This document shows, piece after piece, positions 2,724 to 58,557 of a stretch of 64,000 nt of DNA. The stretch is from Opitutia bacterium ISCC 52. GTDB lineage: Bacteria > Verrucomicrobiota > Verrucomicrobiia > Opitutales > UBA2995. The stretch covers positions 1,922,001 through 1,986,000 of the forward strand of contig CP076040.1 in assembly GCA_014529675.2 (NCBI GenBank), written 5' to 3'. The translations under genes and the position numbers were made by a program. Positions within the stretch are counted from its first letter, which is position 1; every line of letters starts with the position of its first letter. The notes below the pieces were generated by a model. It was not told where the DNA came from. It saw only the letters and a list, made by a program, of their open reading frames with translations, and ran no database searches.

Positions 2724-4271
2724 ATGAAACGAATCAGATACTCTATCCTTATTCTTCTGCCTCTATTTACCGCCTTAATTACCCATGCGGATGTAAACAT
2801 TCTCTGGGTGCAATACTTGACAGCGAATGACACGCTTAAGTTGGCGGCTCACACGGATGCGGATCCAACCGACCCTAGCAATGCTACCGTTGATCTCTAT
2901 TTAAAATCCGGCAGTGGCTGGACGAAGACACGGACAGTCAAAGTAGATCCGCTTACAACAGTGGCCGAATTCCGCATCGATGATTGGGATACGAATCGCG
3001 ACCGGAGGTATCGCGTGAGCTCCGGATCCAGCTCGATCACCGGCACCATCCGTAAAGATCCCGAGGATAAGAGCATCATCAAACTGATGGGCGTCTCGTG
3101 TGTGAATGATAAACGTTTTCCCTACCAAAAGGCCGTGGATCAAATGGTGGCCCAGAATCCTGATCTTGTGTTTTTTCTAGGGGATCAGCTTTACCGGAGC
3201 AATGCAGGAGGGGAATGGATTGACCCCTATGAGGATGATGAAGTGATTCCGGCCATGAAAGGCTACCTGGCCAAATGGCGAAAATTTGGACTGACCTTTC
3301 GTGACCTGTTGAAAGATCGGCCCTGCGTGATTATTACGGACGATCACGATGTTTATGCACGCGATTTGTGGGGCAATGGAGGAATGCTGATGACAGGAGG
3401 CCGAACCGACGGTGGTTACTTTCACATGGACTGGACCAATGCGGTTGAGAGAGTGCAGACCTGGATCCTGCCCGATGCCGCTAATCCGGGGCCCTGGGGC
3501 GACGGCATTATGGCCTATTACACGTCTATGGATTATGGCGGAGTCAGCTTCGCTATTCTTGAAGATCGTAAATTTAAATCGCCGCCAACCGACATTCTTA
3601 AAAAGGCGGTCGATGATCCCCGAACCAACCAACCCAACACGACCTTAGAGGTTGTTAAAGATCCCACATTCGACATCGATACACTCGATGCCCCCGGTCT
3701 TAATCTATTGGGCAAGGAGCAAGAAGCCTTCCTGGCTGACTGGGCACAAAGCGTGGCAAAGTCAGGTAAAATGTCTGTGGTACTACATCAATCGCCCTAT
3801 GCAAACATAGCCAATTATCACCGCACTTTTGGAGACATGGATTCCAGTGCCTGGCCACCAACGCCGCGCGATCGCACACTCCGGTCTCTGACTCCAGCCA
3901 ACCCGGTATTGGTTTCCGGAGATATGCATTACGGAACGATTGTACAACACGGCGTGGACAAATGGGGCGATGGTCCCTGGGAATTTTCCTTACCGCCCTT
4001 TGGTTCAGGTGTGAATCGCCTGTGGGATCCTGTTAAGCCACCTCTAGGCGGAGTCATTCCTGGGAGACCTGGCACCGGCAACCACCATGACCGTTTTGGC
4101 AATAAACTCACCCTGGTCGCCAAATCAGACAAAGGAGTAGGCTACGGGATGATCTTATTGGATAAGGATAGTCGGGACGTGACCTTTCAGTTTCATCCGA
4201 CTGATCCGACGACCCGTGATCCAATTGAAGCAGATGTGCCGGGGTGGCCCAAGCGGATTTCAATTCCGTGA
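2724..4271 (+). CDS. PhoD-like metallophosphatase, secreted
   Basis: A 515-residue exported protein with a signal peptide (KRIRYSILILLPLFTALITHADV) and a short beta-sandwich before the catalytic domain. Metal-binding motifs of the PhoD/alkaline-phosphatase-D family are visible: FFLGDQLY (about residues 150-157), ITDDHDVY (about 204-211) and, near the C-terminus, LVSGDMHYG. The family hydrolyses phosphomonoesters or diesters outside the cytoplasm with Ca/Fe-type metal centres; many environmental members have no known substrate. ATG 2724 lies 3 nt after the BNR gene stop, which indicates translational or transcriptional coupling. It is the first of three distinct PhoD-like genes here (others at 35324 and 60985) and the only one paired with a BNR protein. 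Confidence 0.8.
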   Translation: MKRIRYSILILLPLFTALITHADVNILWVQYLTANDTLKLAAHTDADPTDPSNATVDLYLKSGSGWTKTRTVKVDPLTTVAEFRIDDWDTNRDRRYRVSSGSSSITGTIRKDPEDKSIIKLMGVSCVNDKRFPYQKAVDQMVAQNPDLVFFLGDQLYRSNAGGEWIDPYEDDEVIPAMKGYLAKWRKFGLTFRDLLKDRPCVIITDDHDVYARDLWGNGGMLMTGGRTDGGYFHMDWTNAVERVQTWILPDAANPGPWGDGIMAYYTSMDYGGVSFAILEDRKFKSPPTDILKKAVDDPRTNQPNTTLEVVKDPTFDIDTLDAPGLNLLGKEQEAFLADWAQSVAKSGKMSVVLHQSPYANIANYHRTFGDMDSSAWPPTPRDRTLRSLTPANPVLVSGDMHYGTIVQHGVDKWGDGPWEFSLPPFGSGVNRLWDPVKPPLGGVIPGRPGTGNHHDRFGNKLTLVAKSDKGVGYGMILLDKDSRDVTFQFHPTDPTTRDPIEADVPGWPKRISIP

Positions 4272-4334
4272 GGTCAGGAATGAGGTGTCAGGTTGGAGAC
4301 CCTCAGCGGTTGAAGGACAAGAGTTGTAATAATT

Positions 4335-4402
4335 GTAGGAGACAACTTGTTCGCGACCTGGAATGCCTATGATTTACGAGTCGCGAACAAGTTTGCTCCT
4401 AC
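4335..4402. repeat. REP-like inverted pair (GTAG-headed palindromes), family 1
   Basis: Two 23-nt arms face each other: 4335-4357 reads GTAGGAGACAACTTGTTCG and on to CGAC, and 4380-4402 is its near reverse complement, with 22 nt between. Each arm starts with GTAG and contains an imperfect palindrome, the hallmark of bacterial REP sequences arranged as a BIME. A closely related pair lies at 5964-6031. Arms of this type are known from Pseudomonas, where RAYT transposases mobilise them; no RAYT gene is visible here. Confidence 0.8.
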
Positions 4403-4544
4403 AGAAGGTGTTCGAACGCTCATCAATATATTCTAGTGGTAGATCATTCTCGTTTTCAATAGATACAGCAATCTCACGCAATCGTTGCTCTCATACTGCC
4501 GAAAGCTTGAAATGCATTCCTCTGGCCTTGCATCCAGAGCCCAA

Positions 4545-5936
4545 ATGTTTCTGTCTTGTAGCGTGCTTTACCCTAAGATCCTAAGAACTCTGTGCACGGT
4601 TACCAGTTTGGCTGGGCTTTGTCTGGCCTTACCGTTGCTTACTAACTCGCTCACCGCGGCCGATCAGTCACCCAACATCATATTGATCATGGCGGATGAT
4701 TCCGCGGTGGACAATTACAGTTGCTACGGCAGTGATTACTTTTCGACGCCTCGGCTGGATCGTTTGGCTGCATCGGGCGTGAAGTTTAATCACGCCTATT
4801 CGACGCCGGTTTGTACGTCGAGCCGTGTGAAGATCATGACCGGACGAGACAATGTGCGGAACTATGTGATTTTCGGTTGTTTGGATCGGGAAGAAATTAC
4901 ATTTGGGAGCGTGCTCAAGGATGCTGGATATGCCACTGCGGTTGCTGGTAAATGGCAATTGCATGGGGCGCCCAATGGATCTGTTCCTTCCGACCATGAT
5001 TTCGATACCTTTTGTTTATGGAATTTTCCGGGTGGAGGCCTATCAAGGTTTTGGGATCCCAGCCTGATTCAGGATGGCCGGTTGCTCGATACTAAGGAAA
5101 CTGACTATGGTCCGGATATCGTATCAGACTTCCTCGTCAATTTTATAGAAGAAAACCAGGACGGACCCTTCTTTGCATACTATCCTATGATTTTGGTCCA
5201 CAACCCATTCGACCCGACGCCGGATAGTGTTCCGGTTAAAGGGCGGAGCAAGCAGCAGGAATTGCTGGAGAATTACCGGGACATGGTCAGCTATGCCGAC
5301 AAGATCGTTGGTAAGATTGTAGACAAGTTGGATGAGCTTAAAATACGGGATAACACGATTGTCATTTTTACCGCCGACAATGGCACGAACCGTTCTCTGA
5401 CCTATCCCTTTGAGGAAGAGCAGCGTAAGGGGGAAAAGGGGCTGGCGACTGAACGTGGTTCCCACGTTCCGCTCATTGTCAATGCGCCAGGATTTGTTAA
5501 AGAAGGTATTGAAGTCGATGATATGGTTGATTTTTCAGATATACTTCCCACCTTGGCCGATATAGCCGGAGCAAAGCTTCCGGAGGTCGAACTGGATGGT
5601 CGTTCGTTTTTGCCACAGCTCCAAGGCAAGAAAGGAAATCCACGCGATTGGATTTATCAGTATCACTTTCCGAAGTTTACTCCTGCTGCAATTCCTCATG
5701 GGCAAGGAGTCCGGAATTTGGAAATTATCTGGGCACAAAACCAATCCTACAAATTGTATGATGATGGTTCCTACTATGCCGTCGAAGATCACCAAGAGGT
5801 GAATCATATAAAGAGGGGCAAAGGATCGAAGGTTGCTGAGCGCACTCGAAAGATGCTTCAGAAAGCTTTGGACTCGATGCCTAAGACGTCGCCGAAATTG
5901 AGGCCGGAGTACGGGCCGAAGGGATTAGAGAAGTAA
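4545..5936 (+). CDS. Sulfatase (formylglycine type), paralog of the 7463 gene
   Basis: Exported sulfatase of 463 residues from ATG 4545, the start that best places the hydrophobic signal (CTVTSLAGLCLALPLL). In-frame alternatives are ATG 4512 and TTG 4485. The metal motif is LIMADDSAVDN; the residue converted to formylglycine is Cys90 in CTSSR, where Ser replaces the usual Pro of C-x-P-x-R. A second metal motif is FTADNGTN. It shares LWNFPGGGLSRFWDPS, the RGSHVPLI region and a QKALDSMP tail with the gene at 7463, so these two are paralogs with a different sulfatase between them. The substrate is probably a sulfated glycan; which one cannot be read from sequence. REP-like repeats flank both sides. 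Confidence 0.9.
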   Translation: MFLSCSVLYPKILRTLCTVTSLAGLCLALPLLTNSLTAADQSPNIILIMADDSAVDNYSCYGSDYFSTPRLDRLAASGVKFNHAYSTPVCTSSRVKIMTGRDNVRNYVIFGCLDREEITFGSVLKDAGYATAVAGKWQLHGAPNGSVPSDHDFDTFCLWNFPGGGLSRFWDPSLIQDGRLLDTKETDYGPDIVSDFLVNFIEENQDGPFFAYYPMILVHNPFDPTPDSVPVKGRSKQQELLENYRDMVSYADKIVGKIVDKLDELKIRDNTIVIFTADNGTNRSLTYPFEEEQRKGEKGLATERGSHVPLIVNAPGFVKEGIEVDDMVDFSDILPTLADIAGAKLPEVELDGRSFLPQLQGKKGNPRDWIYQYHFPKFTPAAIPHGQGVRNLEIIWAQNQSYKLYDDGSYYAVEDHQEVNHIKRGKGSKVAERTRKMLQKALDSMPKTSPKLRPEYGPKGLEK

Positions 5937-5963
5937 GCAATTTAAACAAATGAACTTAGATTT

Positions 5964-6031
5964 GTAGCAGCAAACTTGTTCGCGACTTGAACATCTTAAA
6001 CACTCTAGGTCGCGAACAAGTTTGCTCCTAC
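5964..6031. repeat. REP-like inverted pair, family 1 (second copy)
   Basis: Arms 5964-5986 (GTAGCAGCAAACTTGTTCG then CGAC) and 6009-6031 (the reverse complement, ending CTCCTAC) are separated by 22 nt. The right arm is identical to the right arm of the 4380-4402 repeat. It sits between two sulfatase genes and ends 12 nt before the ATG at 6044, so the messenger of the downstream gene could begin with this hairpin if transcription starts upstream. Confidence 0.8.
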
Positions 6032-6043
6032 AAAAAGAACTAC

Positions 6044-7447
6044 ATGAAACACTTAATTAAAAAATCATCTCTCTCCCTATTCTGCTTGTTGGTATTTCCA
6101 TTGTTCACCCACGCCAAAATCGAAAACGTCCTGTTTCTCATCTCCGATGACCTGAAAGCGTCCACCCTCGGGGCCTATGGCGACGCCATGGTTCAGACGC
6201 CGAATATCGACGCTTTGGCAGCTCAGGGCATGGTCTTTAAACGTGGGTATTGCCAGGGAACGACCTGCGGACCCTCACGTCGCTCATTCATGCGTAGTCG
6301 GTATCGGGATGCCAATGGTATTACCATGGGTGAGAACTTCATCAACAACGGGTTCTACTCTGCACGTGTGGGGAAGATCTTTCATATGCGTGTGCCAGGT
6401 GATATCGTAGCGGGTACAGACGGTGAAGATGTAGAGGCGTGTTGGACGGAAAGTTTCAATTCTCCGGGGTTGGAGGCCCACACCGCGGGCGTGTATTCAG
6501 AGTTTAATCACAATATCTTCACGACGAGCATGAAGGTGCGTGCAAGCACTGCTGAGAAAGACCGTTGGTTTGTTTCGGTTCAATACGATGGCGATGGTTC
6601 TGATCAGCCGGATCATAAGACGGCTTCCAAGGCGATTGAGCTTATTCGGGAGCATGGTAAAAGCGATAAGCCCTTTTTTATCGCTGCCGGCTTTGTGCGC
6701 CCACATTACCCGAATGTAGCTCCGAATCAGTATTTCGATCTTTATCCCTATCAGGATATTACTTTGCCAGAAACGAGGGAAGGGGACTTGGATGACATTC
6801 CAAAAGATGGTCATACCTCTGTCACCAGTTTGAATGATCCGATCGGAAAGTATCCCGATAATCAAAAACGCTTTTGGGCTTCTTACTACGCAACCATTAC
6901 TTATATGGATGAGCAAGTCGGACGCATTATTGCTGAACTGGAAGCTCATGGATTACGTGAATCCACTGCGATTGTTTTTATTGGTGATCATGGCTACCAC
7001 TTGGGCGAGCACTTCTTTTGGCAAAAGAGTAATGTACATGAAGATGTGACCCGAGTTCCTTTTATTATCTCCGCTCCAGGTTTTAAGCCTGGTGAATCCG
7101 ATTCGTTTGCTGAACTGGTGGATATCTATCCGACGGTGTCAGAATTGGTCGGTGTATCCGTCCCCCAATCGGTTCAGGGTAAAAGCCTCGTTCCGGTTTT
7201 GAAAAATGCTCGCAAGTCGGTTCGCGAAGCCGCCTTTACCGTGGGAAATCACAAGGAGTTTGCGCTGCGGGGAGACAAGTGGGTTTACATACTCTACAAG
7301 GATGATCAGGAGGAACTATACGACATGCATAACGACCCGAAGCAGTTCACGAATCTTGCTAAGGATCCCCAATACGCAAAAGTGAAAGCTGAATGGCGCA
7401 AGAAGCTGGAGGATCGCATTTCAAAAGCGGGTCTCTCAAGAGGTTAA
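6044..7447 (+). CDS. Sulfatase, iduronate-2-sulfatase-like (S1_7-type)
   Basis: Exported sulfatase of 467 residues. ATG 6044 is preferred because the upstream in-frame codons are REP sequence; it gives MKHLIKKSSLSLFCLLVFPLF as signal. Motifs: LISDDLKAS (metal), Cys75 in CGPSRRS (formylglycine site), GFVRPHYP and GDHGYHLGEH (metal), ELYDMHNDPKQFTNLA near the end. The HYHLGEH-type loop and the FVRPHYP block are typical of iduronate-2-sulfatase-like enzymes, a group that in marine bacteria also attacks fucoidan and other algal glycans. I assign the subgroup by motif memory only. It lies between the two paralogous sulfatases at 4545 and 7463. Confidence 0.9.
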   Translation: MKHLIKKSSLSLFCLLVFPLFTHAKIENVLFLISDDLKASTLGAYGDAMVQTPNIDALAAQGMVFKRGYCQGTTCGPSRRSFMRSRYRDANGITMGENFINNGFYSARVGKIFHMRVPGDIVAGTDGEDVEACWTESFNSPGLEAHTAGVYSEFNHNIFTTSMKVRASTAEKDRWFVSVQYDGDGSDQPDHKTASKAIELIREHGKSDKPFFIAAGFVRPHYPNVAPNQYFDLYPYQDITLPETREGDLDDIPKDGHTSVTSLNDPIGKYPDNQKRFWASYYATITYMDEQVGRIIAELEAHGLRESTAIVFIGDHGYHLGEHFFWQKSNVHEDVTRVPFIISAPGFKPGESDSFAELVDIYPTVSELVGVSVPQSVQGKSLVPVLKNARKSVREAAFTVGNHKEFALRGDKWVYILYKDDQEELYDMHNDPKQFTNLAKDPQYAKVKAEWRKKLEDRISKAGLSRG

Positions 7448-20655: not shown

Positions 20656-20687
20656 TTGATTAAAGGTATTCTTAGTCCACTCATTAT

Positions 20688-20751
20688 CGGCAGCAAGCTA
20701 CCTCCTGCATTTAGATATGCGAAACGAAGTGTAGGAGGTAGCTTGCTGCCG
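20688..20751. repeat. REP-like inverted pair, family 2
   Basis: Arms 20688-20708 (CGGCAGCAAGCTACCTCCTG, then C) and 20731-20751 (GTAGGAGGTAGCTTGCTGCC, then G) are inverted copies with one mismatch, 22 nt apart. Only the right arm has the GTAG head; the left arm has GCAG. The design and 22-nt spacing match family 1 although the sequence differs. It lies between the broken phosphodiesterase and the DUF488 gene. Confidence 0.75.
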
Positions 20752-20791
20752 AATGGAATATCCTGAAAGGAATCGCATTTAGTAGGCACCA

Positions 20792-58494: not shown

Positions 58495-58557
58495 GTAGCA
58501 CAGGCATCTTTCCTGTGTCGCTCCCGGAAATCTACACAGGCAAGATGCCTGTGCTAC
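58495..58557. repeat. REP-like inverted pair, family 4 (AGCACAGGC)
   Basis: Arms 58495-58518 (GTAGCACAGGCATCTTTCCT then GTGT) and 58534-58557 (reverse complement of GTAGCACAGGCATCTTGCCT then GTGT) face each other 15 nt apart, with one mismatch. The GTAG head and 24-nt palindromic design parallel families 1-3 though the sequence is distinct. It starts 4 nt after the amidase stop and may act as its terminator. Confidence 0.8.

What the first reader, a model, noticed from the sequence alone, without database searches (positions are those of the whole stretch)
4335..6031. REP family 1 in face-to-face pairs with 22-nt spacing
Two copies, 4335-4402 and 5964-6031, have identical right arms and a GTAG head. 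Their form (GTAGGAGCAAACTTGTTCGC) is strikingly close to Pseudomonas REP sequences, yet the surrounding genome is of PVC type. This may mean transfer or convergent growth of a RAYT-driven system. Both flank sulfatase genes and may protect or terminate their transcripts.
Basis: partly seen in the sequence, partly recalled or inferred. Interest (0 to 1): 0.6.

Follow-up and report, generated by a model that had tools for sequence, protein, structure and literature searches.

The report
Orphan mobile hairpin repeats in Opitutales
The two hairpins are copies of a small mobile DNA repeat found in one group of Opitutales bacteria; they look like Pseudomonas repeats because they are built to the same general plan, not because they recently came from Pseudomonas, and their own transposase gene could not be found in this genome.

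Summary
Window 4334-4403 and 5963-6032 are two REP doublets, GTAG ends outside, each with 22 nt between the arms. They belong to a family (F1) with 26 copies in this 4.8-Mb genome against 0 for the reversed pattern. F1 occurs in 4 of 6 sampled genomes of the genus and in 5 of 372 of the order. Named records matching contigs of same-genus genomes are Opitutales.

Covariation supports a single-REP hairpin GTAG-GA-6 bp-TT-6 bp-GAC whose third stem pair is almost always an A.C mismatch. F1 doublets moved during divergence of the genus: 3 of 14 sites in G005 coincide with sites here.

Recent transfer from Pseudomonas is not supported. Opitutales RAYTs form their own clade, about 30% identical to the one Pseudomonas RAYT available, although many are flanked by REPs of the same plan. 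No intact F1-flanked RAYT was found; the only one so placed is a decayed gene in G002. F1 is probably orphaned here.

Terminator function is not supported. In sister species the site between the two sulfatases carries a different REP family, and F1 lies unusually often beside sulfatase genes (11 of 20).

The parts
4334..4357 (+). REP F1, left arm of doublet 1 (GTAG head outside; two changes from consensus)
4358..4379 (.). 22-nt spacer of doublet 1
4380..4403 (-). REP F1, right arm of doublet 1 (consensus)
5963..5986 (+). REP F1, left arm of doublet 2 (GTAGCA head)
5987..6008 (.). 22-nt spacer of doublet 2
6009..6032 (-). REP F1, right arm of doublet 2 (consensus, identical to that of doublet 1)
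2724..4271 (+). PhoD-like phosphatase gene; ends 62 nt before doublet 1
4485..5936 (+). sulfatase gene A, between the two doublets; ends 26 nt before doublet 2 (start may be the ATG at 4512)
6044..7447 (+). sulfatase gene B; likely ATG at 6044, 11 nt after doublet 2 (the mechanical ORF starts at 5987, inside the doublet)

Best explanation
The two features are REPINs (inverted REP doublets) of a family, F1, seen in one genus of Opitutales. Inferred mechanism: as single-stranded DNA each REP folds into GTAG-GA-[GCaAAC TT GTTcGC]-GAC, where lower case marks a conserved A.C mismatch at the third stem pair. A cognate RAYT (IS200/IS605-like HUH nuclease) recognises tag and hairpin and moves or copies the doublet as a unit, mostly into gaps downstream of genes. 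Shown here: family, hairpin with covarying stem pairs, fixed mismatch, doublet geometry, related spacers, different sites in different species, and a RAYT clade of the same genus flanked by sister REP families. Inferred: RAYT cleavage and movement (by analogy with E. coli and Stenotrophomonas), and that F1 is now orphaned here because its RAYT decayed or was lost. The resemblance to Pseudomonas REPs comes from a shared REP plan, not a recent transfer. When transcribed the doublets form a hairpin of about 25-30 bp, which could shield the upstream mRNA 3' end; this is untested.
For: 26 copies against 0 reversed controls; 32 model hits at E<0.01. Covariation: both-sided changes at two stem pairs, 0 of 500 shuffles reach the observed covariation score. 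Five stem pairs form in 30 of 31 own arms and 64-65 of 65 relatives' arms, while pair 3 is A.C in 26 of 31 and 63 of 65. Of 35 doublets 32 are head-head; 21 of 32 have a 22-nt gap; spacers are more alike than shuffled ones, mean 9.5 against 6.7 of 22. Turnover: 3 of 14 G005 sites and 2 G003 sites are shared with own sites; site 1 has no REP in G001. RAYTs: NF047646 in 8 of 8 family genomes; own L002 scores over its cut-off. F1 lies just after a decayed RAYT in G002.
Against: No intact RAYT flanked by F1 in any locus examined; the F1-RAYT link rests on one decayed gene cut by a contig end. G002 is 75% complete and in 850 contigs, so flanks and genes may be missing. Movement itself was not observed. 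Non-shared sites could partly reflect missing contigs. The absence of F1 from G004 and G001 could be loss rather than late arrival.
Confidence: 0.8

Rival explanations
1. F1 came recently from Pseudomonas together with its RAYT.
For: The consensus is close to Pseudomonas REPs: PMC3686654 Table 1 (passage read) lists GTAGGAGCGAGCyyGCTCGCGA and GTGGGAGCGAGCTTGCTCGCGAT; a Pseudomonas plasmid carries TGTGGGAGCGAGCTTGCTCGCGA beside its RAYT.
Against: RAYTs of the genus are 28-41% identical to that Pseudomonas RAYT over 78-154 aligned residues and sit in an Opitutales clade of 28 rows (support 95/89), apart from Pseudomonas plus Pseudoalteromonas (99/97). Another Opitutales genome (G180) carries exactly TGTGGGAGCGAGCTTGCTCGCGA around a RAYT only 33.6% identical. 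The exact F1 23-mer is absent from viral contigs, and a composite F1 doublet finds nothing in plasmids.
Confidence: 0.05
2. F1 is still moved in trans by another RAYT of this genome, most likely the intact gene at 3698573 (L002), so it is not orphaned.
For: L002 keeps HUH (DHIH) and Tyr (YMWKNP) motifs and is 94% identical to its G005 counterpart. It belongs to the clade whose REPs share head, TT loop and GA tail. 12 of 26 F1 copies match the 23-mer exactly.
Against: L002 is flanked by other REPs (GAGGAGC and GGTAGC stems), not F1. Reported RAYTs co-evolve with their own REPs (PMC8266576, abstract).
Confidence: 0.3
3. The hairpins are transcription terminators or fixed regulatory RNA elements of sulfatase operons rather than mobile repeats.
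For: Strong hairpins between codirectional genes; 0 of 20 F1 sites lie in divergent gaps (background 48 of 195, p=0.009); 11 of 20 sites touch a sulfatase gene.
Against: No terminator-like site at the doublets; no Rfam family reaches its gathering score in 4000-6500. Site 1 has no REP in G001, and site 2 holds a different REP family in G001 and G003. Covariation is within single REPs, as expected for single-strand DNA recognition.
Confidence: 0.1

Closest known systems
GTAG-1 REP family of Pseudomonas and others (Di Nocera et al. 2013, PMC3733652)
   Same: GTAG tag, two unpaired bases (GW) before the stem, short stem, short loop, 3-base tail (paper text and Table 1 passages read).
   Different: F1 has a conserved A.C mismatch in the stem and a GAC tail. 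Pseudomonas examples in PMC3686654 Table 1 mostly end GAT/GAA and, by my reading, mostly have regular stems. The Figure 1 consensus sequences of PMC3733652 are not held, so exact family assignment was not possible.
GTAG-17, -19 and -20 repeats of Opitutus terrae (PMC3733652)
   Same: Verrucomicrobia, GTAG/GTGG tag, dimers; the paper calls O. terrae highly enriched in GTAG repeats.
   Different: Only 1-2 bp separate partners in GTAG-17 and GTAG-19 dimers, against 22 nt here; sequences could not be compared.
REPINs of P. fluorescens SBW25 (Bertels and Rainey 2011, PMC3116915, abstract and outline read)
   Same: Inverted REP doublets forming a hairpin as the replicating unit, linked to RAYTs.
   Different: Other phylum; no intact cognate RAYT found; sequencing evidence of transposition intermediates not available here.
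E. coli REP with TnpAREP (RAYT group 2)
   Same: A conserved stem irregularity; mutations restoring a regular stem abolished activity (PMC8266576, passages read).
   Different: E. coli REPs are longer with a two-base bulge; E. coli rayT sits on a long branch outside the Opitutales clade.

Membership tests
GTAG REP superfamily | short palindrome with an unpaired GTAG at one end, many extragenic copies | tested here: met
   GTAGGA head in 29 of 31 own and 59 of 65 relatives' arms; 20 of 20 sites compatible with intergenic position (18 clear; two lie in upstream-extended ORFs)
GTAG-1 (PMC3733652) | GW dinucleotide between GTAG and stem, and 3-bp tail at the other end | tested here: met
   GA and GAC conserved; feature text from PMC3733652
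GTAG-1 (PMC3733652) | agreement with the published consensus of Figure 1 | not testable with these tools
   figures are not held
REPIN | two inverted REPs with spacer forming one hairpin | tested here: met
   32 of 35 doublets head-head; folds. Among the 20 own sites, 9 head-head doublets of two full arms and 1 tail-tail were found; the rest are single arms or pair with a degenerate or long-loop partner
REPIN | mobilised by a RAYT | not tested
   would need in vitro cleavage or population sequencing
REPtron (RAYT flanked by cognate REPs) | F1 copies flank a RAYT gene | tested here: inconclusive
   no F1 in the own RAYT-like loci examined; one decayed RAYT in G002 has F1 at its 3' side, other side lost at the contig end
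RAYT (NCBIfam NF047646) | score over curated cut-off | tested here: met
   own L002 82.4 bits against 80; own L004 63.7, below
RAYT subclass 2.5 / group 3 (PMC6006769 Table 1, passage read) | DH[LF]H, WQ and YI[VI]ANP motifs | tested here: not met
   L002 has DHIH, WQ, YMWKNP; L004 has DHTH, WQ and Cys in place of Tyr. Not filed in 2.5
intrinsic terminator | hairpin followed by a T run | tested here: not met
   the two sites found, at 4603 and 6212, lie outside the doublets

The most novel reading that the evidence does not exclude
This genus evolved a RAYT/REP branch that joins the short GTAG-GA-stem-TT-stem-GA plan to an obligatory stem irregularity at the third pair (A.C in F1, T.T in F4, T.G in F2), normally a trait of long group 2 REPs. 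In addition, gaps behind accessory sulfatase genes act as exchangeable REPIN slots, in which families whose RAYTs live or die replace one another.
Probability: 0.2. Interest if true: 0.55.

Novelty: new member of a known kind. Interest (0 to 1): 0.38.

Why it matters
It places a Pseudomonas-like REP plan firmly in a separate Opitutales RAYT lineage, a warning against reading short REP identity as transfer: one Opitutales REP matches a Pseudomonas plasmid REP over 23 nt while the RAYTs share a third of their residues. A conserved mismatch in a short REP makes RAYT recognition rules testable. Several REP families with intact, catalytically altered, decayed or missing RAYTs in one genus give a natural series for what happens to REPs after RAYT loss.

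Tried and rejected
Recent Pseudomonas origin: rejected on the RAYT tree and identities. Terminator: rejected. Known structured RNA: seven Rfam matches, all far below gathering scores. F1 as part of a phage or plasmid: no hit. A RAYT relic near other F1 copies: a profile scan of the fetched F1 loci found only G002. A 250-nt interval between two F1 arms in G003 (L116) holds no RAYT.

Rows left out: the tree used 36 proteins; L106, L104 (broken) and L146, L147, L148, L151 (inside long ORFs) were left out, and some rows were cut at the profile match. A first look at NC_000913 used wrong coordinates and was replaced.

The sulfatase enrichment is post hoc: the sulfatase model was built from F1-adjacent genes, two sites share one gene, and the background is 20 evenly spaced 20-kb stretches. 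The F1-F4 pooled test counts three gaps twice and is not relied on.

Full report
What is there. Doublet 1 lies at 4334-4403 and doublet 2 at 5963-6032. Each is two inverted 24-nt arms, GTAG ends outside, with 22 nt between them. The right arms are identical. Both fold far better than shuffled sequence. Doublet 1 lies 62 nt after a PhoD-like gene; doublet 2 lies 26 nt after sulfatase gene A and 11 nt before the likely ATG of sulfatase gene B.

Copies. The 23-mer with up to 3 mismatches occurs 26 times in the 4.816-Mb genome against 0 for the reversed pattern. A covariance model built from 27 arms finds 35 places at E<=1, 32 at E<0.01; the building set matches by construction. In the genus, 4 of 6 genomes have F1 at up to 2 mismatches (own 26, G002 6, G003 32, G005 24; none in G001 and G004). 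In the order sample it is 5 of 372, the fifth being one two-mismatch hit in G318.

Hairpin. On the GTAG strand the single REP reads GTAG-GA-stem-TT-stem-GAC. Two stem pairs change on both sides, and no shuffle of 500 reaches the covariation score. Over 31 own and 65 relatives' arms, pairs 1, 2, 4, 5 and 6 form in 30 of 31 and 64-65 of 65; pair 3 is A.C in 26 of 31 and 63 of 65. These arms were found with up to 5 substitutions from the F1 consensus, which favours consensus letters everywhere; the contrast between pair 3 and the others is the informative part. In PMC8266576 (part 1 of 7 and passages read), a mismatch put near the middle of a group 3 REP stem reduced or almost eliminated cleavage, whereas the group 2 bulge is required. 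F1 therefore combines a short REP with an irregular stem.

Doublets as units. 32 of 35 close pairs are head-head, and 21 of 32 gaps are 22 nt. The 21 spacers of that length are more alike than shuffled ones: mean 9.5 against 6.7 of 22, two pairs at 15 or more against 0.015 expected. In 21 of 32 doublets one arm is followed by C and the other by T. This fits copying of the doublet as a polar unit with fast spacer drift.

Mobility. Masking F1 arms, the flanks of 3 of 14 G005 sites match an own F1 site; two G003 sites (L195, L201; 20 G003 loci were given) and none of three G002 sites do (20 own sites were given). In G001 the gap at site 1 has no REP. The gap between the two sulfatase orthologues holds in G003 and G001 copies of another family, F4, TGTAGGAGCTGCTTTAGCTGCGATT (G003:C41:27521-27545 exact; G001:C25:1776-1800 with 2 mismatches). 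F4 is itself a genus family: own 15, G001 21, G002 1, G003 47, G005 43, G004 0 at up to 3 mismatches. By inspection its third stem pair is T.T. Whether F1 replaced F4 or both hit the same gap cannot be told. No tagged doublet was recognised by eye in the G002 and G004 gaps.

RAYTs. NF047646 matches all 8 sampled family genomes, 5 of 8 over the cut-off; the own genome has 6 matches. L002 (158 aa) passes the cut-off and keeps its motifs; L004 has Cys where the catalytic Tyr is expected. Both are flanked by other REPs of the same plan. F1 follows directly on a RAYT remnant in G002:C551: its HUH motif reads NHIP, the frame is broken, and the gene is cut by the contig end; it is 42% identical to L002 over 85 residues. 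A profile scan of the fetched F1 loci found no other. PMC3686654 (passages read) already proposes that REPs decay once their RAYT is lost.

Pseudomonas resemblance. In a script that sought tagged hairpins with a similar partner within 500 nt of RAYTs, 29 of 34 Opitutales RAYT loci qualified, many with GTAG/GTGG-GA-stem-TT-stem-GA (L082, L104, L106, L142 and L146 did not). G180 has TGTGGGAGCGAGCTTGCTCGCGA on both sides of its RAYT, identical to the REP on a Pseudomonas plasmid (L153), yet these RAYTs are 33.6% identical. In a tree of 36 RAYT proteins the 28 Opitutales rows of this branch group together (95/89), apart from Pseudomonas plus Pseudoalteromonas (99/97); Proteobacterial sampling is thin and E. 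coli sits on a long branch. Of 39 viral-contig copies of a degenerate Pseudomonas-like pattern, 37 read GCGAGCTTGCTCGC, two GCGAACTTGTTCGC and none F1; the hosts of those contigs were not checked.

Surroundings. Of 20 own F1 sites, 11 touch at least one sulfatase gene. In 20 evenly spaced 20-kb samples, 18 of 147 codirectional or convergent gaps of 40 nt or more do, Fisher p=4e-5. Among the sites fetched of other families: F2 6 of 15, F3 2 of 8, F4 2 of 5, F5 3 of 19 (only part of each family was fetched). No F1 site is in a divergent gap, 0 of 20 against 48 of 195, p=0.009. The association may reflect tolerated insertion behind accessory genes.

Literature. GTAG repeats in Verrucomicrobia are in print (PMC3733652: parts 1 and 2 of 8 and passages read). 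My searches for REP/RAYT with Verrucomicrobia and Opitutus terrae with palindromic listed no paper on this genus by title or abstract start; only PMC open-licence papers were searched. REP/RAYT papers were found; of PMC6006769 and PMC8049555 I saw passages only.

Verdict. A real, lineage-restricted REPIN family, ordinary in kind, with three less ordinary traits: a fixed stem mismatch, a missing or decayed RAYT, and sites shared in turn by different REP families beside sulfatase genes.

Noticed in passing
window 20687-20752: Tail-tail pair of another REP family (F2, TGTAGGAGGTAGCTTGCTGCCGA), seen as inverted repeat I4; F2-type copies flank RAYT genes L002 and L004 of this genome.
   Followed up: partly
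window 58495-58557: Head-head pair of a further family (F5, GTAGCACAGGCATCTTGCCTGTG), 37 copies in the genome at up to 2 mismatches, reversed control 0; one copy lies about 0.3 kb from a RAYT-like gene with an internal stop at 3190501-3190833.
   Followed up: partly
L008, L014, L020, L028 (own genome), L187 (G005): Long-loop F1 partner: the TT loop is replaced by about 35 nt, typically holding a stretch like GCTGTCGGCTAAAGCCTCGGTA; L187 of G005 matches L008, L020 and L028 at 85-90% identity over 61 nt.
   Followed up: partly
L004:1324-1857: RAYT with Cys in place of the expected catalytic Tyr (FCMWNNP), otherwise intact and flanked by REPs.
   Followed up: no
own genome 1325033/1325124, 1351347/1351393, 1375009/1375068: Three of 20 F1 sites have a REP of another family within 100 nt (F2, F4 and F3), as if some gaps collect REPs.
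   Followed up: no
L131 (G223:C1), about 1295-2470: Tandem array with a period of about 121 bp of two REP types on both sides of an Opitutales RAYT.
   Followed up: no
window: Nine sulfatase ORFs in 64 kb, and 21 among 373 ORFs of at least 80 aa in 400 kb of samples: a sulfatase-rich genome.
   Followed up: partly
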